In this document: positions 2,221-62,738 of the stretch, piece by piece | Position numbering within the stretch: position 1 is the first letter of the stretch | Layout of the letters: the number at the start of each line of letters is the position of its first letter | Assembly (NCBI GenBank): GCA_019058315.1 | Contig: JAHPZH010000002.1 | Location: 1,187,910-1,251,909, forward strand | Length of the DNA: 64,000 nt | Direction of reading: 5' to 3' | DNA from: Candidatus Helarchaeota archaeon | GTDB lineage: Archaea > Asgardarchaeota > Lokiarchaeia > Helarchaeales > RDOG01 | Notes under the pieces: model-generated | Told to the model about the DNA's origin: nothing | Databases searched by the model: none | Seen by the model: only the letters and a program-made list of their open reading frames with translations | Position numbers and translations under genes: made by a program

Positions 2221-4190
2221 TGGTTGAAAATAAGGTCAGACTAGGTGTTTTTTTATGTAGTTGCGGCGTAAACATAGGTGGGATAATTAATATTCAAGAA
2301 TTAAACGAGTTTTGCAAAGGTTTAGATGATGTTATTTTCGTTGGTGAATCCGAATTTGTATGTTCTTCCATAGGGCAAAATTTAATAAAAGAAAATACTG
2401 AAAAATTCAACCTAAATCGAATTCTAATTGCTTCATGTAGTCCGAAAATGCATGAAGATACGTTTAGAAAATTATTAAATGAAATTAATATCAATCCATA
2501 TCTTCTTGAAATTGTAAATCTTCGAGAACAATGTAGTTGGTGTCATTCAGATGATCCTAAAGCAGCTACTGAAAAGGCAAAATCCTTAATTAAAATGGCT
2601 GTGGCTCGACTTAGAAATCTGGAACCACTACCAACAAAAGAAGTCGGCATAAACAAGACCACTTTGATAATCGGAGGAGGTGTAGCTGGAATGCGAGCTG
2701 CGCTTGACATAGCAGAAAGAGACTATCAAGTATTTTTACTAGAAAAAAAGTCATATCTTGGTGGCCATATTGTGCAACATAATGTCCTATTTCCTAATAA
2801 CAGTAATCCATTAGAAATTTATGAAAGATATATAAAAGAATTTGAATATCGAAAAATCAAAGTATTAACAAATTCTCAATTAGAAGATATTGATGGCTAT
2901 ATTGGTAATTTTACAGTTACAATAAAATCTAATCCAAATTTCGTGAATAGCTCTTGTAATTTATGTGGAGAATGTGAAAAAGTATGTCCAATTGAAGTTG
3001 AAAATGAGTTTAATCTTTCCTTAAATAAAAGAAAAGCAATATATCTACCTTTTTCAAATGCTTTTCCTAAAAAATTTACCATTGATAACACTTCCTGCAC
3101 GAAATGTGGAAAATGTGTTAAAGTATGTAAGCAAAGTGCAATTAATTTGAATGCTCATGAAGAAGTTCAAAGGATTAATGTCGGAACTATAATTGTTTCC
3201 ACTGGTTTTGATACTTATGAACCCATTGATGAGTATGGTTATGGGACTTCACCTAATATTTTAACTTTACTTCAGATGGAAAGAATATTAAGCAAAACTG
3301 GACCTACAAAGGGTAAGATTTTAAGAATATCTGATAAAAGGGTACCAAAAAGAATTGTCTTTATAGGTTGTGTAGGATCTCGGGAACCAACTCATGTAAA
3401 TACACCACGACATTATTGTTCACGAATTTGTTGCTCCTCAATTATGATGAATGCAATACATATAAAGGAAGAGGACCCCGATATTGATGTTGTAGTTTTA
3501 TATCGTGATATCCGAACTCATGCTAGAGGGAATGAAGATTTATATACCCGAGCAAGAAAAATTGGGGTAAAATTCATTAGATTTTCTATCGATAACAAAC
3601 CTAAAGTTATTATAGATTCAAATAAAGATTTGTTACTAGTCAAAGTTTATGATAATTCTCTTCAAATAAATTTTGATATCCCTTGTGGCTTAATTGTGTT
3701 AGCATCTGCTATAATTCCCCCTTCTAATATAGGAAATTTGACATCTATACTAAGATTAACAACTTCACAAGATGGATTCTTTCAAGAACTGCATCCGAAA
3801 TTGGCTCCATTAAATACAATTAATAAAGGAATTTATATTGCTGGAGCTGCCCAAGCACCAAAGGATGTTATTGATAGTATTTCCCAAGCTTCTGGAGCAG
3901 CAGCAAAAGCTTTAATTCCAATGGAACAAGGTTATATTCCAATTGAATCAGCCATAGCCCACATCGATGAAAGTCTGTGCAGTGGTTGTGGAGTGTGTAT
4001 AGAATCATGTGCATTTAATGCTATTGAATTGGAAGCAACACAAAATATAAAAACTGCTCAAATTATTGAAGCTGCCTGTAAAGGTTGTGGTGCATGTGGA
4101 GCAAGCTGTCCCTCTGGAGCTATAAAAATTTTACATTATACAGATAAACAGATATATTCAGCTTTAGAAGCACTTTTAAAATCAACTTAA
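2220..4190 (+). CDS. hdrA: HdrA, full-length form with N-terminal HdrA domain and C-terminal 2x[4Fe-4S] ferredoxin
   Basis: N-term VRLGVFLCSCGVNIGG, FAD motif IIGGGVAGMRAALDIA, C-term CSGCGVCIESC and CKGCGACGASCP. Confidence 0.88.
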   Translation: MVENKVRLGVFLCSCGVNIGGIINIQELNEFCKGLDDVIFVGESEFVCSSIGQNLIKENTEKFNLNRILIASCSPKMHEDTFRKLLNEININPYLLEIVNLREQCSWCHSDDPKAATEKAKSLIKMAVARLRNLEPLPTKEVGINKTTLIIGGGVAGMRAALDIAERDYQVFLLEKKSYLGGHIVQHNVLFPNNSNPLEIYERYIKEFEYRKIKVLTNSQLEDIDGYIGNFTVTIKSNPNFVNSSCNLCGECEKVCPIEVENEFNLSLNKRKAIYLPFSNAFPKKFTIDNTSCTKCGKCVKVCKQSAINLNAHEEVQRINVGTIIVSTGFDTYEPIDEYGYGTSPNILTLLQMERILSKTGPTKGKILRISDKRVPKRIVFIGCVGSREPTHVNTPRHYCSRICCSSIMMNAIHIKEEDPDIDVVVLYRDIRTHARGNEDLYTRARKIGVKFIRFSIDNKPKVIIDSNKDLLLVKVYDNSLQINFDIPCGLIVLASAIIPPSNIGNLTSILRLTTSQDGFFQELHPKLAPLNTINKGIYIAGAAQAPKDVIDSISQASGAAAKALIPMEQGYIPIESAIAHIDESLCSGCGVCIESCAFNAIELEATQNIKTAQIIEAACKGCGACGASCPSGAIKILHYTDKQIYSALEALLKST

Positions 4191-4198
4191 TTGGAGTA

Positions 4199-4636
4199 AT
4201 GAATTTGGATAATGAGTTTAATCCCCGAATTGTAGCATTTTGCTGTAATTGGTGTGCATATGCAGGTGCAGATCTAGCGGGAACCAGTAGGATGCATTAT
4301 CCTCCAAATATCCACATAATTCGAGTCATGTGCTCTGGCAGAATAGACCCTGAACTAATTTTAAATGCTCTCCGTTTAGGTGCAGATGGGGTTTTAATTG
4401 CGGGGTGCCATCCAGGGGATTGCCAGTATATATCTGGAAATGAAAAAACAATTAGACGTTTTAAGATATTAGAGAAATTATTAACGCAATTTGGTTTCAA
4501 TAAAGAACGTGTGCGATTAGAATGGATTTCTGCTTCTGAATCAACAAAATTTGTGGAAAAAGTCAAGGATATGGTTGCAAAAATAAAAAAAATAGGAAAA
4601 AATCCTTTATGTAAAAATTTAAAAAGTATTAAATAA
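4199..4636 (+). CDS. mvhD: MvhD/VhuD-type [2Fe-2S] electron transfer subunit linking hydrogenase and HdrA
   Basis: CCNWCAYAGADLAG...MCSGRIDPELILNALRLGADGVLIAGCHPGDCQYISGN. Confidence 0.9.
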   Translation: MNLDNEFNPRIVAFCCNWCAYAGADLAGTSRMHYPPNIHIIRVMCSGRIDPELILNALRLGADGVLIAGCHPGDCQYISGNEKTIRRFKILEKLLTQFGFNKERVRLEWISASESTKFVEKVKDMVAKIKKIGKNPLCKNLKSIK

Positions 4637-4683
4637 CTATTTTTTTAATATTAAAGGTTTCAATTTACGAGAGGTCAATTGAA

Positions 4684-6714
4684 ATGATTTCGGATAATAC
4701 ACTTTTTTATGACTGGTTCAGCTTTATTTTTCGAATTATTGCGCTTTTAATTTTATATTCTTTCTTAACACTATCAAGTATTGCTACGCTAGATAAATAT
4801 CGAAGAATCGACAGAGAGGACTTCTCTAAACAAACTGGTGAATACCTTGGATTACCCGTACCAATTATTGTATTAAATTCATTAATATTGGGCATAATAG
4901 GAATCCTCATAGTATATCCAATTTCTTTTTCTCAAGAAATATATGCTATATACGAATTAGTATCGGGATCTGTTCTATGTATATTATTCGTTTGGTTGAT
5001 AATTGATATTACATATCATAGACCAAGTGAAAAGTCAAAGACAATAACGTTATTAATTTCATATGGTGGATTTATACTTCTCTTGCCATGTTTACTTTTT
5101 TCTGAAGGAATTATGTTGATATTTTTCACCCTATTTATCATTTATATAAATAGTGAATTGAATGGAGCAACTGTTTGGATTATTTGGGATATAGATCCCG
5201 AAAAAAACAAAAGTTTGATCTCCATTTCATTAATTTCCTTTATCATGGTACCCACTTTAACTATATTGTGCGCAATTTATCCCGATCCTGCAATACAAGC
5301 AGGTCTAGGAGTTTCCGCCATATGTAATGCATTAACTACATTATACTATTCAGAATTGATTCAAGGAAAGAAATTTTACTTAAATTTGGGAGGTTTGGTT
5401 TCCTTTGGGTCTACAATATTTATTTCTCTATTCCTTCCAACTCCCATTACTGGCAGTTCAATAAATTCATCATTGATTACTGCGCTTTTTATGAATGGTA
5501 TTTGCTTTGCATATCTATTAAATTTATTAATAAAGCGTAAATTTGATTTTGAAGAAAATAACAGATCTAAAACTCTACTTGGATCTTTAACTTTTACATT
5601 CGCTTTTTGGATTCTTTTTGTTTCAGTTAATTCAATTCTTAGTAACTCTACGGGAATAATTCCAATTCAGGGTAATTTTTGGAGTATAATAACCGTAATT
5701 CCCTTTGTGTTTTTAAGCTTCATGATTGCAATTTTCCAAACTATTATGTTATTTATTCTTACTTCAATAGCAGCATATGACCTTCAGTGGGTTCAAGATT
5801 TGGTTGAATGGTTAAAAAGACAAGAAGAATTCTTCTTATATTCAAGTATTGTTATTTTTATTACTTTAATTATCCCATTAATCGTTGGCGGAATTTGGCC
5901 TTCAAGTTGGAGTGTTTATCCTGAAATGTTGATGATAACGGTGATATTATGGGTAGCGGGATTGATATGCCTTTCTGCCACCTATTTTGGTTTTAATGAG
6001 AGAGTTTTTGAATCGATGATATGCTATATATGCTATATTGGACTTGGATTGGCTTACGGTATAGTTTTTGCTCCAATGGCACTTGGGACATTGGGACTTA
6101 TTGGCTTGGTTGTAATATCAACGATTTTATTGGGGCTTGCAATATTTGAAGAAGACCTCGATTTAGAGTATATACTACCTATAATAGTTGCAGTTTTTTC
6201 AATGATATTAGGAATCTTTTTGATGTACTTAAGACTTGATAATCAAATAACTAATCCTGATACAGCTAATTTAGCTGGAATGTTTGAGTGGTTTTTTGCA
6301 CTTTTATTTGCAGCTAATGCTGGTACGGTAGCTGCTTATTTTATTGTAGAAAAAAGGGAAAGAGTAATTGGTATTTTAATATTAGGAATTGTATTAATTT
6401 CTTTAACCCATTTAATTCTGTTTGTTTGGGATACTAGGCATTCAATGGCCTTATCTTATTGCTGGATTGCCACAGGTGTGATTTTAATAATACCATCACT
6501 ATTTGTTGTATTTAATTCCCTTTGGGATGCTTTACACGAGGATAAGTGGAGCTCAGTAATAATGTCAATTCTCTCAGCTATTATTATTATGTTTGCATCT
6601 GGAACTAAATTTACTCCAGGTCTAGGAGATTTTGGAAATTCAATTATTGCAATAATTCTAGCTATCAGTTTGGTCGTAGGATATTATATACTTACTAGAA
6701 GGCATGAGATATAA
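4684..6714 (+). CDS. Large multi-pass membrane protein of unknown function
   Basis: 676 aa with many hydrophobic segments across its length; no family recognised. Confidence 0.7.
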   Translation: MISDNTLFYDWFSFIFRIIALLILYSFLTLSSIATLDKYRRIDREDFSKQTGEYLGLPVPIIVLNSLILGIIGILIVYPISFSQEIYAIYELVSGSVLCILFVWLIIDITYHRPSEKSKTITLLISYGGFILLLPCLLFSEGIMLIFFTLFIIYINSELNGATVWIIWDIDPEKNKSLISISLISFIMVPTLTILCAIYPDPAIQAGLGVSAICNALTTLYYSELIQGKKFYLNLGGLVSFGSTIFISLFLPTPITGSSINSSLITALFMNGICFAYLLNLLIKRKFDFEENNRSKTLLGSLTFTFAFWILFVSVNSILSNSTGIIPIQGNFWSIITVIPFVFLSFMIAIFQTIMLFILTSIAAYDLQWVQDLVEWLKRQEEFFLYSSIVIFITLIIPLIVGGIWPSSWSVYPEMLMITVILWVAGLICLSATYFGFNERVFESMICYICYIGLGLAYGIVFAPMALGTLGLIGLVVISTILLGLAIFEEDLDLEYILPIIVAVFSMILGIFLMYLRLDNQITNPDTANLAGMFEWFFALLFAANAGTVAAYFIVEKRERVIGILILGIVLISLTHLILFVWDTRHSMALSYCWIATGVILIIPSLFVVFNSLWDALHEDKWSSVIMSILSAIIIMFASGTKFTPGLGDFGNSIIAIILAISLVVGYYILTRRHEI

Positions 6715-6836
6715 CCAATATTTTATCCTGATACCTCTCCAGAAAAAGAAAAAGCAGAATCATAAGAACAATTAGTTATTTTTTGTAGATCTTGATTCAT
6801 TAAATTGTTGAAATAGATTAATGAGAGGAATATTAT

Positions 6837-8483
6837 ATGACTACTATTAAGATTAATGACGAGTGGCTCCTCTATGCGTTAAAGAATGAAGTTGGAAAAA
6901 CTTTAACAAAGAAAAAACTTGCTGATATCACATATTTAGATTGGAGCGAATATAGAGATGAAGCTGGGGAAACTTGGGAACCAATAGGTGACATTCAAGG
7001 GCTTGAATATTGTATTAATCTAGAGGTCTTATCATTTGACGGCAATTCAGTTACAGATCTTTCACCTTTAAGTGGTTTAAAAAAACTAAAAGAAATTTGG
7101 CTTGTGGGTAATTCCGTAGAAGATGTGAGTCCAATTAGCAAATTACCAAACCTTGAAAAGCTCGTTCTAGATCTAAATTCCAGCCTTAAAGATATAAGTC
7201 CACTATCAAGTCTCCCATCTATTAAATATATCAATATAAGTAGTACGAGTGTAAGAGATATTACCCCCCTACAAAATTTAAACACTCTTGAAGAATTAAG
7301 TTTATATATTGACAATTTAGACTTATCTCCAGGAAGTAAAAATCGCGAAGTTTTAATTAACCTTATAAATAAGGGAGTTAAGGTAAATAATAGAAAAATC
7401 GAAGAACTTACCAAAGAAGCAGCATCAAAAATCAAGTTAAAAAAATCAGCTTCCTTTGAAGATAAGCTAAGAGCTCAAGGGGCTTTTAACATTACTAAAA
7501 TAATTGTTAATAAAGGAATAAACGGAATTGATGGAGAAAGAGGTAATACTCCATTACATATGGCTTTAGAAAATTATTTTATCCTGAAAGAAAATCTAAT
7601 AGATCAAACCGCTGTTGTTCAATTACTTATAGAAAATAAAGCTGATTTGAATAGTAAGAATAAAAATGGACACACACCTCTAAGCTATTATTTAAATAAT
7701 AACAAGGATGCTGAATTAAAAATAGTGAAAATCCTAATAGATAATGGAGCAGATGTCAATTTATCTTATGGTTATACAAATCCTCCTATTTATTATGCAA
7801 TAAAGGAAAATAGGACTGATATCATAAATTTACTTATAGAATCTGGAGCATCAGTTAATGAACCTATAATTTTCAATGCTCTTTGTCAACATGGATATAT
7901 AGATATTGTTGAAAGGCTCTTAAAAGATGGGTATAAGACCAATCAAAAAGAAAAAAATTTTGGAAGAACACCACTTTTTTCTGGAGTTGAGGGAAATCAG
8001 ATTGAAGTAATACAAATTCTCCTAAATTATGATGCTGACGTGAATTTTAAAGATGAACTTGGAGCCACACCCTTACTTGTTGCTAATAACAAAGAAGTTC
8101 TTAAAATATTGCTTGAGAATGGTGCCGATATAGATGCAGTTGATGAATATGGTCAAAATGCTTTATTTGGTTTGTTAATAGGAGAAAGGTATGAATGTAT
8201 TAAGTATCTACTAGAAAAAGGGATTCAAGTAAATATTAAAGATAAATATGGAAATACTCCTTTACATAGAATTCATTATGACTCATATAACCCTCAAGAG
8301 TCTTTAGATATAATAAACCTCCTTGTGAAATATGGTGCTGATGTAAATGCCCGTAATAATGAAAACAAAACACCTTTAGATTTGTTGCAAAATCCAAGTA
8401 TGATAAAAAGACTAAATTTCTTAATGAAAAAGAAGAAAAAGCAGAAAAAGAAACAGAAAAAAACAAAAAAGAAAAAAAAGTAG
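6837..8483 (+). CDS. Leucine-rich repeat + ankyrin repeat protein with Lys-rich C-terminal tail
   Basis: N-term LRRs (LSPLSGLKKLKEIWLVGNSVEDVSPISKLPNLEKLVL), then ankyrin repeats (GNTPLHMALENY..., NGADVNLSYGYTNPPIYYAI...); ends KKKKKQKKKQKKTKKKKK. Confidence 0.88.
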   Translation: MTTIKINDEWLLYALKNEVGKTLTKKKLADITYLDWSEYRDEAGETWEPIGDIQGLEYCINLEVLSFDGNSVTDLSPLSGLKKLKEIWLVGNSVEDVSPISKLPNLEKLVLDLNSSLKDISPLSSLPSIKYINISSTSVRDITPLQNLNTLEELSLYIDNLDLSPGSKNREVLINLINKGVKVNNRKIEELTKEAASKIKLKKSASFEDKLRAQGAFNITKIIVNKGINGIDGERGNTPLHMALENYFILKENLIDQTAVVQLLIENKADLNSKNKNGHTPLSYYLNNNKDAELKIVKILIDNGADVNLSYGYTNPPIYYAIKENRTDIINLLIESGASVNEPIIFNALCQHGYIDIVERLLKDGYKTNQKEKNFGRTPLFSGVEGNQIEVIQILLNYDADVNFKDELGATPLLVANNKEVLKILLENGADIDAVDEYGQNALFGLLIGERYECIKYLLEKGIQVNIKDKYGNTPLHRIHYDSYNPQESLDIINLLVKYGADVNARNNENKTPLDLLQNPSMIKRLNFLMKKKKKQKKKQKKTKKKKK

Positions 8484-53740: not shown

Positions 53741-55453
53741 ATGGACGAAAATATGGATGATAATATAATTAAAGAGGAAGTAAAACCAAAAATAGCTGAC
53801 GAACCTTCAAAAAAACTATCAAAAGAGGCAAGAAAAAAGCTTCGCGAAAAGAAAAGGGCTCAAACTGGTCCTTCAACTAAAATGACTTTATATCTTTGGT
53901 TTGTGCTCATTTTTGCTGGAGTTGTCACATTCTTCGATGGATGGTGTACTTTAGCAATTACTTTAGCTATGGGGGACGTCGGAATACAAGCTAATTTAAT
54001 TGAACAATTAACTAACCGCGGTCTATTCGACTATTTCGGCATTTCAAATAACCCTGTGATGATGGGTATAATTCTGAGCATAGCTGGCAGTGGAGTTGTT
54101 ATGGCAGTTTCATTTAAATATTTTGTGGATAAATATGGACGAAGACCTTTAACTCTTATCACTGCAGTTTGTTTTATTTCATTCTCCGCCTTAACTGGTT
54201 TAACTCCTCCTGGTGATACAGGCCTAATTATTTTTCTTATTTTAAGGATTCTGGCCAATTATTTCTTATCGGCTGATATCGTAACAATAATTATAGCAGA
54301 AGAAGCTCCAGATCATTTGAGAGGAAGATTAATTGGAGTAGTTTTAGCAACAAATACTGTCGGTGGTTTTATCTGTGGGATAATTCAAATGGTTGGAGTA
54401 ACAATAGAGCTACCTGGAGGTTACATTTTAAGTACTTGGCAGTCTTTATTTTTCTTATCCAGCCTTGGATTTATTTTCATAATTCCCATGTTCTTTTTCT
54501 TAAAAGAAACTTGGCGATTTGATGGTATGAAGAAATATGAGCAATGGCGAAAGAAAAGGGGGTTAGCCTCAAAAACTGGATGGGCTGTCCCTTTAAGAAG
54601 ACAATATGCGCGTGCCATGATCCTAGGCTGCATTATGGGTTTTCTTATTAACCTCATTTATTTCGCACAAGTCACATTTTTTGGAATTTACTTTGTGAAA
54701 GAATTAAACATGACTTCAAAATTTCTTGGTTTGGCATCGCTTCCATTAATGCTTTCTGCAGGAATTGGATACTATATAGCAGGCCCCTTAATGGATCGTT
54801 GGGGAAGAATTCCTACTATCCATAGATTCGGATGTACAACATTAGTTGGTGGCCTTATTTTTTCATGGCCCACGGTTTTTGTTGTTGGAGGCATTCCAAA
54901 TCCTTTACTTATGGCTCTCGTAATTGGTGGTGGAATGATGGGAATTCTATCACTTACAGTATTAATGACTGCAGCCGTACTTGTTCCGCTGGAAATGTTA
55001 CCAACTCATATTAGAAGTACTGCAATGGGTTGGATGGGAGCAATTGCAAGAGGTGCTATGATTGTATCTCCTTTCTTAATGATGTTCGGTTCTGAAACAT
55101 TAGGTGGTCTAGGACTTACCTATCAAGCCATGTTTGCACTTATGGGTATGCCCTTAACAACTCTATTGTTTTCAGCATATTTATTGGCTCCAGAGAGTAA
55201 AGGAAGAGTATTGGAAGAAATAGTTATGACAGAAATCTATACTAAACAGAAAAGAGTTGATAAAAAAGAATATAGGAGACCATATTATTATTTTGCAATG
55301 GGTATTACATCCTTCTTCTTTACAGGTTTAATTTACGGTAATACTGGTGATGGGATTTTTAAAAGTGTAATATTAATAGTAAGTATTTATAGCATAGTAT
55401 GTCTCGCTTGCTTCTTAATAGTGGTTTGGGCTCGTAATGTTATTTCAGAATAA
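53741..55453 (+). CDS. MFS transporter (sugar-porter-like)
   Basis: FKYFVDKYGRRPLTLITAV, APDHLRGRLIGV, AGPLMDRWGRIPTI, PTHIRSTAMGWMGAIARG. Confidence 0.88.
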   Translation: MDENMDDNIIKEEVKPKIADEPSKKLSKEARKKLREKKRAQTGPSTKMTLYLWFVLIFAGVVTFFDGWCTLAITLAMGDVGIQANLIEQLTNRGLFDYFGISNNPVMMGIILSIAGSGVVMAVSFKYFVDKYGRRPLTLITAVCFISFSALTGLTPPGDTGLIIFLILRILANYFLSADIVTIIIAEEAPDHLRGRLIGVVLATNTVGGFICGIIQMVGVTIELPGGYILSTWQSLFFLSSLGFIFIIPMFFFLKETWRFDGMKKYEQWRKKRGLASKTGWAVPLRRQYARAMILGCIMGFLINLIYFAQVTFFGIYFVKELNMTSKFLGLASLPLMLSAGIGYYIAGPLMDRWGRIPTIHRFGCTTLVGGLIFSWPTVFVVGGIPNPLLMALVIGGGMMGILSLTVLMTAAVLVPLEMLPTHIRSTAMGWMGAIARGAMIVSPFLMMFGSETLGGLGLTYQAMFALMGMPLTTLLFSAYLLAPESKGRVLEEIVMTEIYTKQKRVDKKEYRRPYYYFAMGITSFFFTGLIYGNTGDGIFKSVILIVSIYSIVCLACFLIVVWARNVISE

Positions 55454-56650: not shown

Positions 56651-56721
56651 ATTTAATAGAATTGATATTTAATCTAATTCCGAGATATAAACATTTAAAT
56701 ATGTATAATGTTAAATTTTAC

Positions 56722-56749
56722 TTGAATGTAAAAAATAGTTTACATTCAA
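56722..56749. promoter_or_regulatory. Perfect 11-bp inverted repeat, candidate operator: TTGAATGTAAA-aaatag-TTTACATTCAA
   Basis: Arms 56722-56732 and 56739-56749, 38 bp before the start of the PH-HTH gene. Confidence 0.6.
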
Positions 56750-56786
56750 AAAATGTTTTACAAAATTAGGAGATGAATGAAGAAAA

Positions 56787-57647
56787 ATGTCTGAAAAATA
56801 TAAAATGGATCAAAAAATCGATAAATCATTGATAACTAAGGAAACTTTCAAAGCATTCATAATAGTAATCTCAATCTGTGCATTAGCATGTTTAATTGCA
56901 TCTTTCGTTATAGCTGGTGCATTTAACGATCCTGAAAACAATCCATTAGGTCATAATCTTCAATATATTTACATTCCAATTATATTAATTATAATTGGTA
57001 CAGTAGGTGTTTCATTACCATTTGTTGTAGTTGTTGTCACACGAGTTTACATGGGTAAGTATGTAAGCAGTTTTAAATACAAGTTGACCAATTCTGCAAT
57101 AGAGATTCGCCAAGGTGTGTTCACAAAGAATAAAGTCACCATACCTTATTCACGTGTTCAAAATATTAATGTCGTGAATGGTATCTTCGATAGAATTTTT
57201 GGACTTTATACCGTTTTAATAGAAACGGCTGGTATTTCAGGAGTACAAGCACAAGGAGGTAAAATCGGAAGACCTGAGGGTTATTTACCTGGATTAAAAA
57301 ATCCACATGAATTCGAAGCAGAATTAAAACAAATGTTAGACAAGTATAATGTGTTACCATCGGGATTAGAAGAAAAAATCTTCAAGCCTCAAGAATTAGC
57401 CTTTGATAATTTTATCTCTTATATACTTAGCAAAATGAGAGATAGAGATGATTTATTAAAAACGAATGTTAAAGACCTCAGGGAAAAACAAAAAATAACC
57501 TCAATAGAGCTTGCAGCAAAAATAGGAGTTAAAAACGAAACTATAGAACTTTTAGAAGCAGGAAGATACACGCCTTCATTAAGTTTGGCGTATAAAATTG
57601 CTAAAGAATTAAAATGCAAAATAGAAGACCTATTTCAATTCGATTAA
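56787..57647 (+). CDS. Two-TM membrane protein with bacterial PH-like (bPH2) domain fused to C-terminal Xre-type HTH
   Basis: Two TM helices, SFKYKLTNSAIEIRQGVFTKNKVTIPYSRVQNINVVNGIFDRIFGLYTVLIETAG (bPH2); C-term VKDLREKQKITSIELAAKIGVKNETIELLEAGRYTPSLSLAYKIAKELKCKIEDLF. Confidence 0.82.
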   Translation: MSEKYKMDQKIDKSLITKETFKAFIIVISICALACLIASFVIAGAFNDPENNPLGHNLQYIYIPIILIIIGTVGVSLPFVVVVVTRVYMGKYVSSFKYKLTNSAIEIRQGVFTKNKVTIPYSRVQNINVVNGIFDRIFGLYTVLIETAGISGVQAQGGKIGRPEGYLPGLKNPHEFEAELKQMLDKYNVLPSGLEEKIFKPQELAFDNFISYILSKMRDRDDLLKTNVKDLREKQKITSIELAAKIGVKNETIELLEAGRYTPSLSLAYKIAKELKCKIEDLFQFD

Positions 57648-57687
57648 ATATTTTTTTAATATTTTAAAATAATAAAATGGTGCAATT

Positions 57688-58074
57688 GTGAGATTAAAAA
57701 CAAAATTAGTTTCCAAAATTAAGGAATTACGGGCGGAGAGTGACATTACTCAAGAAAAATTAGCTGAAGAAGTTGGTGTCACTCGCCAAACTATTTCCTA
57801 TTTGGAGAAAGGCGAATATAATCCCTCTCTAAAAATTGCTCATGATATTGCACAATATTTTGGAAAATCAGTGGATGATGTTTTTACATATGAAACAGTA
57901 TTAACTATTAAAAGAGAACAATTTAATCTCACTCTTGAACAATTAGCCACCCTGATTGGTATCAAAATTGAAGAATTAGAAAAATTAGTAAATGAGGAAT
58001 ATCAAAATCCTCCAGAATTTTTGAAAAAAATAGCAAAACAATTAAATTGTAAAATCGAGGATTTGGTTGAGTAA
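57688..58074 (+). CDS. Tandem Xre-type HTH transcriptional regulator
   Basis: IKELRAESDITQEKLAEEVGVTRQTISYLEKGEYNPSLKIAHDIAQYFGKSVDDVF; second unit REQFNLTLEQLATLIGIKIEELEKLVNEEYQNPPEFLKKIAKQLNCKIEDLVE. Confidence 0.88.
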   Translation: MRLKTKLVSKIKELRAESDITQEKLAEEVGVTRQTISYLEKGEYNPSLKIAHDIAQYFGKSVDDVFTYETVLTIKREQFNLTLEQLATLIGIKIEELEKLVNEEYQNPPEFLKKIAKQLNCKIEDLVE

Positions 58075-58105
58075 ATAGCTAATTATAAAAATAATTTAAC
58101 AGAAA

Positions 58106-59209
58106 GTGAATCATTTGGATAAACTAAATGAGTTTTTTGCCAAAAAATGGGCATTACCCCTATTATATTTTGTTTTAATTATTTTAAACGTGATCTTTCC
58201 TCCTATAACATCTAGAGGATATGCTGCTCAGGATACTGGAAGAGTAATATCAAGTTTATTAAATACCTCTATCATTCCTTATGTATGGTTAGCCCCTGTA
58301 TTTCATATTGCGACAATAATTTTAGTAATTATTATTTGGCGTCTAGGGGTCAAAGTAAGTAGAGTTTTTAGTTTATACATTGGTATAAATTATATTTTTA
58401 TAGGTCTTATCCAAAATTTTGGAGAAACATGGGAATTTGGTTTTGTTATATTAATCGGGACTATGATTACAGAATTCATAATAGGATTTTTATGGATATG
58501 GGATGCTTACGATCCTAAAACTGAAAGTAAATTTGAGAAACTTCCACTTTGGAGATATTGGACTATACCATTAGCGATTTTAGCATATTGGTGCCCAATT
58601 AACTCTACACAAAACATGGGACCCTATTTCAACCCACTATTTTTATTGATTTCGCCAGGGTATGGACTTACTTTTTGTATGACAACACCCGTGTTTCTAT
58701 GTATTTTAACCCTTTTCTATCCACATGTAAATAAACCCGCTCTTAAAATAACAGCTTGTGCTGGATTTATTATGGGAGTTTTGAATATGTTTAGTTTGCT
58801 CATCCCTTACACCTTTTGGATGGGTATATTGCATATTCCTTTATTGTCTATCTCAATTTATGTATTCATTTTACCTAAAATAATGAAAAATGAGCCAAAA
58901 ATTGTAAATCAAGAACTTGTAAAAATCCCCCATGTTCAAGGACGTCTTATTGGAGAAGTAAACATAGGTAAGTTAGAAGATTTTTTAATTGCAGAAAAAT
59001 CTACCGAAGGAGTAGAGGTAGGCGATATTGTTGAAATTATTGGGGGACCATTTAAAGGAGAAAAAGCAAAAATCACCCGAGTTGATACAACTGAAGATGT
59101 AGTTATTTTAGTATTATGTGAATCTACTCGCCCGATTCCAATTAAAGTTCATGCAGATTTTATTAAAAAGATAATCAGTAAAGAAAAAAGAAAGCCTGAA
59201 ATGAAATAA
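58106..59209 (+). CDS. Multi-pass membrane protein with C-terminal Spt5/NusG-like KOW domain
   Basis: About 7-8 hydrophobic segments, then STEGVEVGDIVEIIGGPFKGEKAKITRVDTTEDVVILVLCESTRPIPIKVHADFIKKI. Confidence 0.82.
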   Translation: MNHLDKLNEFFAKKWALPLLYFVLIILNVIFPPITSRGYAAQDTGRVISSLLNTSIIPYVWLAPVFHIATIILVIIIWRLGVKVSRVFSLYIGINYIFIGLIQNFGETWEFGFVILIGTMITEFIIGFLWIWDAYDPKTESKFEKLPLWRYWTIPLAILAYWCPINSTQNMGPYFNPLFLLISPGYGLTFCMTTPVFLCILTLFYPHVNKPALKITACAGFIMGVLNMFSLLIPYTFWMGILHIPLLSISIYVFILPKIMKNEPKIVNQELVKIPHVQGRLIGEVNIGKLEDFLIAEKSTEGVEVGDIVEIIGGPFKGEKAKITRVDTTEDVVILVLCESTRPIPIKVHADFIKKIISKEKRKPEMK

Positions 59210-59243: not shown

Positions 59244-60935
59244 ATGAAAAAAATTGATAAAATTTCTAATATTAATGAAAAAAAAGCTATTTTACATATT
59301 AAGAAAGAATATTATTTAGATGAAACAGATTTTGAAATTGATAAAGAGGGACGAGTAGTTAAACTTCGATTACTAGAAAAATGGTTTGAAATTGCACCTG
59401 AAATTATAGGAAAACTCACTCATTTAGAAGAATTAGACCTTCAAAATAATGATTATTTTTATCCCCCAGAAGATGTTGATTCAAAAATTGGAAATTTAGA
59501 AAATCTTACCAAATTAAAAAAATTAAACCTCCATTTTAATTATCTTAAAAAAATTGAAGGTTTAGCGAATCTCTCTAATTTAAGAGAATTAGATCTTCAT
59601 ATGAATAAAATTGTAAAAATAGAGAACTTAGAAAATCTTCATAATTTAAATCACTTATACCTCTCACATAATCATATTGAAAAAATAGAGGGTTTAGAAA
59701 ATCTCACTCAATTGAAAACTTTAGATTTCGCATATAATCCAATTAAAAAAATAGAAGGATTAGAGAATCTAACTCAACTACAAACTTTAGATTTTATGCA
59801 TAATAAGATAACAAAGATCGAAGGTTTGGAAAATCTCCATAAATTGGAAGATTTAAATTTGTTTGGGAGTGTTATAAAAAAGATAGAAGGCTTAGAGCAC
59901 CTTACTCAATTAAAAAAATTAGATTTATACGGAAAAGAGATTAAAAAGATAGAAGGGTTTGAATGTCTTATTAATTTAGAAACGTTGTATTTATATGGAA
60001 ATCAAATTGAAAAAATTGAGGGGCTTGAGACTCTTTCTAAATTACAGCATCTATCTTTTAATAAAAATAAGATAAAAAAGATTGAAGGTTTAGATAATTT
60101 ATTGGAATTAGAAGGAATAAATATTTCTGAAAATGAAATTATAAAGATCGAGGGATTAGATAATCTCATTAAATTACAAAAATTAGATCTTGCCAGTAAT
60201 AAGATAAAAGAAATTAATGGTTTAAATAAATTAAATCAAGTGGAAGAAATAGACCTTTCCAATAATCAAATCGAAAAAATAATTGGGCCATTAAACCTTT
60301 CTAATTTAAAAATACTAAAAATTAAAAATAATAAGATCAAGCAAATAGAAGGGTTAGAAGAACTAACACAATTAGAGGAATTAGATTTATGTGAAAACAA
60401 AATAACGAATATTATGGGGCTAGACAGACTCGTTCAATTGAAATATTTGAATCTGGATAACAATCTAATCTATATGCTTGAAGGGTTAGATAATCTATCA
60501 AATTTAGAAAGTTTACATATTTCAGACAATAAAATAACAAAGATAGAAGGTTTAGAAAAGCTTAACCAATTAAAAAAATTAATATTAAGCTCTAATCTCA
60601 TTTCTAAAATCGAAGGTTTAGAGAATCTTCCTCAATTAGAAACTTTAACTCTACATTTTAATCAAATTAGAAAGTTGGAAGGATTAGATAATCTTATCCA
60701 TTTAACAGATCTTACCCTTGATTACAATCCTTTGGATGCAGAAGACCAAAAAATAATTAAAGAAGATATAAAAAAAATAATTTCTCATTATAAAAAGAGA
60801 GAAATAAAAGGGCTTGTTAAGCAATTGGAATTATTAAAGGCACAGTCTGAAATAGACGGACTGAATTTAGAAGATTATATTATTTTAAAAAGGAAAATAG
60901 AAAAAATTAGTAAAAAAATAAAAGATTTTAAATAA
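59244..60935 (+). CDS. SDS22-type leucine-rich repeat protein with charged C-terminal helical module
   Basis: Many 22-aa repeats of LxxLxxLxLxxNxIxKIEGLENL type. Confidence 0.92.
   Translation: MKKIDKISNINEKKAILHIKKEYYLDETDFEIDKEGRVVKLRLLEKWFEIAPEIIGKLTHLEELDLQNNDYFYPPEDVDSKIGNLENLTKLKKLNLHFNYLKKIEGLANLSNLRELDLHMNKIVKIENLENLHNLNHLYLSHNHIEKIEGLENLTQLKTLDFAYNPIKKIEGLENLTQLQTLDFMHNKITKIEGLENLHKLEDLNLFGSVIKKIEGLEHLTQLKKLDLYGKEIKKIEGFECLINLETLYLYGNQIEKIEGLETLSKLQHLSFNKNKIKKIEGLDNLLELEGINISENEIIKIEGLDNLIKLQKLDLASNKIKEINGLNKLNQVEEIDLSNNQIEKIIGPLNLSNLKILKIKNNKIKQIEGLEELTQLEELDLCENKITNIMGLDRLVQLKYLNLDNNLIYMLEGLDNLSNLESLHISDNKITKIEGLEKLNQLKKLILSSNLISKIEGLENLPQLETLTLHFNQIRKLEGLDNLIHLTDLTLDYNPLDAEDQKIIKEDIKKIISHYKKREIKGLVKQLELLKAQSEIDGLNLEDYIILKRKIEKISKKIKDFK
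59500..60720 (+). repeat. Intragenic 66-bp (22-aa) LRR-encoding tandem repeats
   Basis: Recurring aaaaaaatagaaggtttagaaaatctcactcaatta-like units. Confidence 0.85.
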
Positions 60936-61031: not shown

Positions 61032-62738
61032 GTGCATGTGATGAAAGAAAAAGAAAAGACAAAAACTACCGATCTTGAAACTTTTAAAAAATTACCAAAG
61101 GATCAACGCAAGAAAATTCGAGAAAAAAGAAGAATCGAAGCTGGTTTGCCTACAAAAATGACTATATACCTCTGGTTTGTTCTCTTCTTTGCAAGTGTCG
61201 TTACATTTTTCGATGGATGGTGTACTCTCGCAATTACGCTGGCTATGGGAAGTTTTGCTGGAGGAGTAGATTTATTGGAACAATTACTTAATCCTGATCT
61301 TTTTACATATTTTGGATTAACATCTAGTCCGGTTATGATGGGAATTATTCTTTCTATAGCAGGAATTGGAGTCGTAGTTGCCGTTTCTTTTAAATATTTT
61401 GTTGATAAATATGGTCGTCGTCCATTAACTCTTATAACTGCAGTTCCGTTTATTACATTCTCAGTTTTAACTGCATTTGTTCCTCCTAGTAGAGAAGGGT
61501 TAATTTTATTTCTTATTTTAAGGATTTGTGCTAACTACTTTCTTTCAGCTGATGTGGTAACTATTATAATAGCGGAAGAATCTCCTAATCATTTGAGAGG
61601 TAGATTGGTTTCAATGGTTCTTGCAATGAATGCAGTTGGGGGGTTTGCTTGTGGAATGATTCAAGCGACGGGAATTAAAATTCCATTCTCTGGTGCTTGG
61701 GGACCAAGTTTAAGTACCTGGCAAAGTTTATTTTTCTTGACGAGTATTGGATATTTATTTATTATTCCACTATTTATCTTCTTAAAAGAAACTAAACGAT
61801 TTGTACAAATGAAAAAATATGAAGAATGGCGAGCAAAAAAAGGATTAAAAGCTAAATCTGGATGGTTTGCACCTTTACAAAAAAAATATGCACGGGGGAT
61901 GGCAACAGGAATGATCGTTGGATTTTTAGCACAATTAATATATTTTGCTCAAGTAACCTTCTTCGCACTCTATTTTGCTAAAGAACAGAATTTAACTCCA
62001 AAGGTGGTAGGAATTGTATCATTACCACTAATGCTTGCAGCAGGAGTAGGTTATTTTGTAGCTGGACCTATATTAGACCGATGGGGAAGACTTCCCACTA
62101 TATATAGATTTGGTTGCACAACTTTAGTAGGAGGTATGGTCTTTTCATGGCCTACAGTCTTTATTGTTGGTGACATTGCCAATCCGTTACTTATGGGCAT
62201 TGTTTTAGCTGGAGGTATGATGGGTATATTCTCTCTAACAATATTAGCTGCTGCAGGAACTATTCTTCCCATGGAAATGTTACCAACTCATATTCGAAGC
62301 ACTGCTATGGGTTGGATCGGTGCTATTTCAAGAGGTGCAACTATTGTGGCTCCTTTCTTAATGATGTATGGGGCGGAAGCATTGGGTGGATTAGGACTTA
62401 CTTATCAAGCTATGTTCGCACTCATGGGAATGCCATTGACAACAATACTGTTTACTGCCTTCCTATTAGCACCTGAAAGTAAGGGAAGAGATTTGGAGGA
62501 AATCGTAGCTACTGAAACTTACTCTAAAATGAAGAAAATATCTGAAAAAGAATACAGAAGACCTTATTACTACTTTGCAATAGCCATCTCTTCATTTTAT
62601 ATTACAGGATTAATTTACGGTAATACCTCTGATGCAAATTTCTTAAATGTATTCATTATCGCGACCTTCTACACGGCGTTATGCTTGGTTTGTTTCATAT
62701 TAGTTATTCTGGTCCGTAGAATAATTACAGAGAAGTAA
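61032..62738 (+). CDS. MFS transporter, close paralogue of 53741-55453
   Basis: Shares long stretches such as SFKYFVDKYGRRPLTLITAV, HLRGRL, PTHIRSTAMGW and LGGLGLTYQAMFALMGMPLTT. Confidence 0.88.
   Translation: MHVMKEKEKTKTTDLETFKKLPKDQRKKIREKRRIEAGLPTKMTIYLWFVLFFASVVTFFDGWCTLAITLAMGSFAGGVDLLEQLLNPDLFTYFGLTSSPVMMGIILSIAGIGVVVAVSFKYFVDKYGRRPLTLITAVPFITFSVLTAFVPPSREGLILFLILRICANYFLSADVVTIIIAEESPNHLRGRLVSMVLAMNAVGGFACGMIQATGIKIPFSGAWGPSLSTWQSLFFLTSIGYLFIIPLFIFLKETKRFVQMKKYEEWRAKKGLKAKSGWFAPLQKKYARGMATGMIVGFLAQLIYFAQVTFFALYFAKEQNLTPKVVGIVSLPLMLAAGVGYFVAGPILDRWGRLPTIYRFGCTTLVGGMVFSWPTVFIVGDIANPLLMGIVLAGGMMGIFSLTILAAAGTILPMEMLPTHIRSTAMGWIGAISRGATIVAPFLMMYGAEALGGLGLTYQAMFALMGMPLTTILFTAFLLAPESKGRDLEEIVATETYSKMKKISEKEYRRPYYYFAIAISSFYITGLIYGNTSDANFLNVFIIATFYTALCLVCFILVILVRRIITEK

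What the first reader, a model, noticed from the sequence alone, without database searches (positions are those of the whole stretch)
56722..59209. Compact operon: membrane bPH2-HTH fusion, double-HTH regulator and TM-KOW protein
Seen: three consecutive genes with short gaps, the first combining two TM helices, a bPH2-like domain and an Xre HTH, the second being two HTH units in tandem, the third a membrane KOW protein. The C-terminal HTHs of genes 1 and 2 share an ending (LKCKIEDLF / LNCKIEDLV). Inference: a possible membrane-linked transcriptional sensing system in which DNA-binding and transcription-factor-like domains are held at the membrane.
Basis: partly seen in the sequence, partly recalled or inferred. 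Interest (0 to 1): 0.75.

Follow-up and report, generated by a model that had tools for sequence, protein, structure and literature searches.

The report
Membrane-linked repressor pair in Asgard archaea
In Lokiarchaeia-group Asgard archaea a membrane protein that carries a DNA-binding-type domain is almost always encoded next to a small repressor, behind a recurring palindromic DNA site, which looks like a membrane-controlled genetic switch; in this genome the third gene is an unrelated membrane protein to which a recent copy of half of the elongation factor Spt5 has become fused.

Summary
The genes are real, but they are a conserved two-gene system plus a lineage-specific third gene. Gene 1 (286 aa: two TM helices, bPH2, C-terminal HTH) and gene 2 (tandem HTH, or a single HTH in one family) are adjacent on one strand in 50 of 57 assessable loci of the class. 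Gene 3 is next to the pair only here. A perfect 28-bp palindrome (56722-56749) lies between a TATA box and gene 1. Its core, ATGTWA-N8-TWACAT, recurs upstream of gene 1 in 22 of 60 related loci (0.2 expected), and the strict form occurs once in the 5.8-Mb genome. Gene 2's first HTH keeps the [ST]RQTI recognition helix nearly everywhere. Gene 1's HTH keeps RQT only where gene 2 is missing (6/7 versus 0/50). The best solved match is CylR2, the repressor partner of membrane protein CylR1. In 19 of 50 relatives an ABC-transporter ATPase follows. My reading: gene 2 is an autorepressor that gene 1 controls from the membrane. Gene 3 is a membrane protein of unknown family fused to a truncated Spt5 copy (87% DNA identity to the genome's own spt5, dN/dS 0.17). 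New variant of a known kind.

The parts
56694..56703 (+). TATA-like element TTTAAATATG of the gene 1 promoter
   Evidence: Sequence; the same TTTAAATA element lies just before the palindrome in many relatives. Not experimentally tested.
56722..56749 (+). candidate operator, perfect palindrome TTGAATGTAAA-AAATAG-TTTACATTCAA (core ATGTAAA-N6-TTTACAT)
56787..57647 (+). gene 1: YdbS-like membrane protein (2 TM, bPH2) with C-terminal CylR2-type HTH, 286 aa
57069..57242 (+). bPH2 domain of gene 1, Pfam-matched residues 95-152 (predicted structured to about residue 188)
57459..57641 (+). HTH of gene 1 (residues 225-285), recognition helix changed to KNETI
57688..58074 (+). gene 2: tandem-HTH protein, 128 aa, GTG start
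57709..57888 (+). HTH1 of gene 2, recognition helix TRQTI, probable operator reader
57901..58065 (+). HTH2 of gene 2, degenerate, probably not DNA-binding
   Evidence: absent in the f5 family, where gene 2 is 64-76 aa
58106..59209 (+). gene 3: polytopic membrane protein fused to Spt5 C-terminal half, 367 aa
58890..59200 (+). Spt5-derived segment of gene 3: end of NGN plus KOW, 87% DNA identity to the genome's own spt5
59244..60935 (+). next gene, leucine-rich-repeat protein, 34 bp after gene 3; possibly co-transcribed

Best explanation
Genes 1 and 2 form a membrane-controlled, self-regulated repressor module. Gene 2 dimerises and binds the palindrome at 56722-56749 through its first HTH, blocking transcription from the TATA box just upstream and so repressing the operon (inferred from sequence and comparison). 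Gene 1 is anchored by two TM helices with its bPH2 domain and HTH on the cytoplasmic side (topology inferred). Its HTH has lost the canonical DNA-reading residues and acts as a docking surface for gene 2 (inferred). A change in the membrane sensed by the TM/bPH2 part (lipid state or a membrane-active compound, inferred) alters this contact and releases gene 2 from DNA, so that the downstream membrane genes are expressed. In relatives those are often an ABC transporter; here they are gene 3 and perhaps the LRR gene. The Spt5-derived tail of gene 3 is a recent addition that keeps a foldable KOW domain but cannot replace Spt5.
For: Adjacency: gene 1 and a gene 2 homologue on one strand in 50 of 57 assessable loci. 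Operator: core palindrome upstream in 22 of 60 loci against 0.2 expected; control spacings N6, N9 and N10 gave 0; a one-base-shorter form (N7) in 9; one strict site in the genome. DNA reader: [ST]RQTI or RQTV helix in every gene 2 HTH1 read except one SRQMI. Gene 1 keeps RQT in 6 of 7 loci without a companion and 0 of 50 with one. Nearly the same operator stands before companionless loci (L118, L120, L125: ATGTAAAGTWTACTTTACAT, helix in gene 1) and companion-bearing ones (L083: ATGTAAACTATACTTTACAT, helix in gene 2). Analogy: both HTHs match CylR2 best or near best; CylR1 at the membrane relieves CylR2 repression (PMC5454873). Cargo: ABC ATPase directly downstream in 19 of 50 loci, with a large membrane protein beside it in nearly all.
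Against: No binding, expression or co-transcription data exist here. Contact between proteins 1 and 2 was not tested (no complex prediction available). The link between companion and lost RQT rests on only 2 transitions in the tree, and many gene 1 HTHs keep the Q-T-I part (P-x-QTI). Part of the loci show no clear palindrome. The operator motif was defined after seeing the sequences. In the window no ABC transporter follows, and neither in its nearest relative G084.
Confidence: 0.55

Rival explanations
1. Gene 1 is itself a transmembrane transcription regulator of the ToxR/CadC kind that binds the operator from the membrane, and gene 2 is a helper or co-binder.
For: Gene 1 in companionless relatives has a canonical RQTI HTH behind the same operator, so the ancestral protein could have done exactly this. 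Transmembrane regulators are widespread in archaea (PMC10269533).
Against: In the window and in most companion-bearing loci the recognition helix has lost R and often Q (KNETI here), whereas gene 2 keeps RQTI.
Confidence: 0.25
2. The pair is linked by descent but works as two separate units: gene 2 a plain autorepressor of the operon, gene 1 a membrane or cell-envelope protein whose HTH is only a structural fold (as in RodZ).
For: bPH2 proteins of the YdbS/YdbT kind act in peptide export with no known DNA binding (PMC8657885); HTH_25, the Pfam family I recall as covering RodZ, gives only a weak match.
Against: Both HTHs are CylR2-like, and the loss of gene 1's helix follows the presence of gene 2, which points to a functional hand-over.
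Confidence: 0.15
3. All three genes form one functional unit in which gene 3 brings an Spt5-type KOW domain to the membrane to couple elongating RNA polymerase or ribosomes to the regulated locus.
For: Gene 3 follows with a 31-bp gap; its KOW differs from spt5 mostly at silent sites (dN/dS 0.17) and is predicted folded.
Against: Fusion found in this genome only among 232; membrane homologues lack KOW; gene 3 is never beside the pair elsewhere; most of NGN is missing and the remnant is predicted disordered. The dN/dS may reflect constraint on the true spt5 copy alone.
Confidence: 0.05

Closest known systems
CylR1/CylR2 of the Enterococcus faecalis cytolysin operon
   Same: A membrane protein and a small Xre-type repressor encoded as a pair; gene 2 HTH1 and gene 1 HTH match CylR2 by sequence, and the gene 1 HTH also by fold.
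   Different: CylR1 is described only as membrane-bound; here the membrane partner carries a bPH2 domain and an HTH of its own; gene 2 usually has a second, degenerate HTH; the host is an archaeon and the regulated genes are not a toxin operon.
YdbS/YdbT family (bPH2 membrane proteins)
   Same: Two TM helices plus one bPH2 domain, as YdbS; relatives act in membrane transport of peptides (PMC8657885).
   Different: YdbS is described as two TM helices and one PHb2 domain, without an HTH or a paired repressor.
Transmembrane transcription regulators (TTRs, such as ToxR and CadC)
   Same: An HTH on a membrane-anchored protein; probably the state of the companionless relatives.
   Different: Here the DNA-reading function appears to have moved to a soluble partner.
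Archaeal Spt5 (NusG family)
   Same: The last 110 residues of gene 3 are a copy of the genome's own Spt5.
   Different: Most of NGN is missing; it is fused to a polytopic membrane protein.

Membership tests
bPH2 (PF03703) / YdbS-like membrane protein | bPH_2 domain above gathering score after two TM helices | tested here: met
   62.9 bits against 22; helices 14-46 and 58-95 then a PH-like fold
Xre/Cro-type HTH_3, CylR2-like | HTH_3 above gathering score and CylR2 among the best solved relatives | tested here: met
   gene 1: 45.1 bits, CylR2 E 1e-11; gene 2: 95.4 bits, CylR2 second at 7.5e-10 after DR_2454
CylR1/CylR2 system | membrane protein paired with a CylR2-like repressor and an operator palindrome | tested here: met
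   conserved pair and palindrome
CylR1/CylR2 system | CylR1 homologue and cytolysin operon alongside | tested here: not met
   the membrane partner is bPH2-HTH and the downstream genes differ; CylR1 itself was not compared by sequence
Transmembrane transcription regulator | TM region plus DNA-binding domain in one protein | tested here: met
Transmembrane transcription regulator | binds its target DNA while in the membrane | not testable with these tools
   recognition helix residues are changed, which argues against it
Spt5/NusG elongation factor (gene 3) | complete NGN domain plus KOW | tested here: not met
   match covers model positions 49-144 of 145 only; NGN remnant has pLDDT below 50

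The most novel reading that the evidence does not exclude
The membrane-bound Spt5 KOW of gene 3 works together with the membrane repressor pair to bring elongating RNA polymerase or coupled ribosomes to the membrane, an archaeal membrane-coupled transcription device.
Probability: 0.05. Interest if true: 0.9.

Novelty: new variant of a known kind. Interest (0 to 1): 0.6.

Why it matters
Little is known about how Asgard archaea pass signals from membrane to genes. This pair comes with a defined operator that recurs across a whole class, so a membrane-to-gene route becomes directly testable. It also appears to record DNA-reading shared between, or moved from, a membrane protein and a soluble partner (two changes on the tree). 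The gene 3 fusion is a clear case of a housekeeping elongation-factor domain being copied onto a membrane protein.

Tried and rejected
Three-gene conserved operon: rejected, gene 3 is never beside the pair in relatives. Gene 3 as an assembly chimera of spt5: rejected, the two copies differ by 13% at DNA level. Gene 3 as a working Spt5: rejected, NGN is mostly missing. A regulon in this genome: one strict site; a relaxed pattern adds one site on another contig (C10), and a search with up to 3 mismatches adds one weak site. Class-wide genome counts of the palindrome (0-3 per genome in most) are not above the reversed-pattern control in many genomes, so a wider regulon is not supported. Sigma-70 type promoter and terminator scan: no excess over shuffles, and not suited to archaea. 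Defence libraries: only generic HTH matches. Plasmid search: only partial matches, none covering 80%. Gene 3 membrane part: no named family by Pfam, no solved structural match apart from the KOW part. Paper searches for Asgard bPH2 or Xre regulators: nothing held.

Full report
What is there. Gene 1 (56787-57647, 286 aa) has two predicted TM helices (14-46, 58-95), a bPH2 domain and a C-terminal HTH; gene 2 (57688-58074, 128 aa, GTG start) is two HTH units; gene 3 (58106-59209, 367 aa) is a polytopic membrane protein ending in a KOW domain. The genome is 5.79 Mb in 12 contigs. Its same-family relative G084 has a contig of 15413 bp, the same length as a record named Candidatus Helarchaeota (JALGVI010000068.1), and the gene 1-gene 2 stretch is the same in both; the other named matches are Lokiarchaeota or Lokiarchaeia. 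The window is therefore most likely from a Helarchaeales-type Asgard archaeon.

The conserved unit is genes 1 and 2. Full-length bPH2-HTH proteins were found only within the class. I read 57 further loci in addition to the window. Counting a fragmentary gene 2 at a contig end as present, 50 of 57 assessable loci (window included) have a gene 2 homologue directly downstream on the same strand, typically 27-150 bp away. In the f5 family gene 2 is a single HTH of 64-76 aa. Gene 3 is next to the pair only in the window.

Operator. TTGAATGTAAA-AAATAG-TTTACATTCAA lies 65 to 38 bp before the gene 1 ATG and about 20 bp after a TATA-like TTTAAATA. Alone it is unusual but not overwhelming: 4 of 500 Markov shuffles of the upstream region had a palindrome as good. 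The comparison is the strong part: ATGTWA-N8-TWACAT occurs within 300 bp upstream of gene 1 (or just inside its start) in 22 of 60 related loci against 0.2 expected from the rest of the same DNA; spacings N6, N9 and N10 occur in none, and N7 (ATGTAA-N7-TTACAT) in 9. In many loci it begins a few bases after the TATA box, a position where a bound protein would be expected to block initiation. In the f5 family the palindrome changes to TGTCAA...TTGACA or TGCAACC-ATT-GGTTGCA. The strict form is found once in the whole genome. The motif was written down after looking at the sequences, and related loci are not independent, so the counts should be read as strong but not as exact probabilities.

Which protein reads the operator. 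HTH1 of gene 2 has the helix [ST]RQT in every locus read but one (SRQMI), while HTH2 has no such helix. Gene 1 keeps RQT in 6 of 7 loci that lack gene 2 and in 0 of 50 that have it. In the tree made without the HTH columns, companion status changes twice and the RQT state three times; the independent comparisons nearly always go the expected way, but two are too few for a formal test. Companionless loci of family f7 (RQTI in gene 1) and companion-bearing loci of f6 (RQT in gene 2) share nearly the same operator. The simplest reading is that DNA reading passed from the membrane protein to the soluble partner; the tree is unrooted and the opposite direction is not excluded.

What it resembles. 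Both HTHs match CylR2 and the related DR_2454 best among solved structures by sequence, and the modelled gene 1 HTH does so by fold. In E. faecalis, CylR1 at the membrane relieves repression by CylR2 (PMC5454873). The TM-bPH2 part resembles YdbS, whose relatives are needed for export of a bacteriocin and are encoded next to ABC-transporter genes (PMC8657885). Directly downstream of the pair, 19 of 50 loci have an ABC ATPase, nearly always followed by a large membrane protein that is the probable permease (no Pfam match for the one tested). This suggests response to membrane-active compounds or lipid state, which is inference.

Gene 3. Residues 252-365 align with the C-terminal half of the genome's own Spt5 at 80% identity, and 58890-59200 is 87% identical to it as DNA. 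The own spt5 lies on the same contig, about 117 kb away, beside a gene that reads as ftsZ (my reading of the sequence). The membrane part exists alone in about a dozen other Asgard genomes, without KOW and without linkage to genes 1 and 2. No other genome of 232 gave a match spanning both parts. Synonymous changes exceed non-synonymous ones per site (dS 0.45, dN 0.07, ratio 0.17); this pairwise ratio cannot tell constraint on gene 3 from constraint on spt5. The predicted model folds the KOW but not the NGN remnant, and its best solved matches are Spt4/5 structures.

Limits. No experiment or complex prediction supports the contact between proteins 1 and 2. Bacterial genomes could not be searched broadly, so a bPH2-HTH fusion outside Asgard archaea cannot be excluded.

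Noticed in passing
window 53741-55453 and 61032-62738: Two MFS transporter genes, 68% identical as proteins, flank the block that holds this finding.
   Followed up: partly
window 59244-60935: Leucine-rich-repeat protein of 563 aa directly after gene 3 (34-bp gap), possibly in the same transcript.
   Followed up: no
L085 (G118), 4962-7228; L130 (G104), 2996-5520: Loci with two bPH2 genes in tandem before the gene 2 homologue; in L085 the second copy matched only the bPH2 part and its reading frame is interrupted before the HTH (one TAA).
   Followed up: partly
G105, several contigs: At least seven identical copies of ATGTTAATATTATTTAACAT across the genome, possibly part of a repeat or mobile element.
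   Followed up: no
L121 upstream of gene 1: Two copies of a different palindrome (GCAACC-ATT-GGTTGC) before gene 1, with a changed gene 2 helix (SRQMI): possible co-variation of operator and recognition helix.
   Followed up: partly
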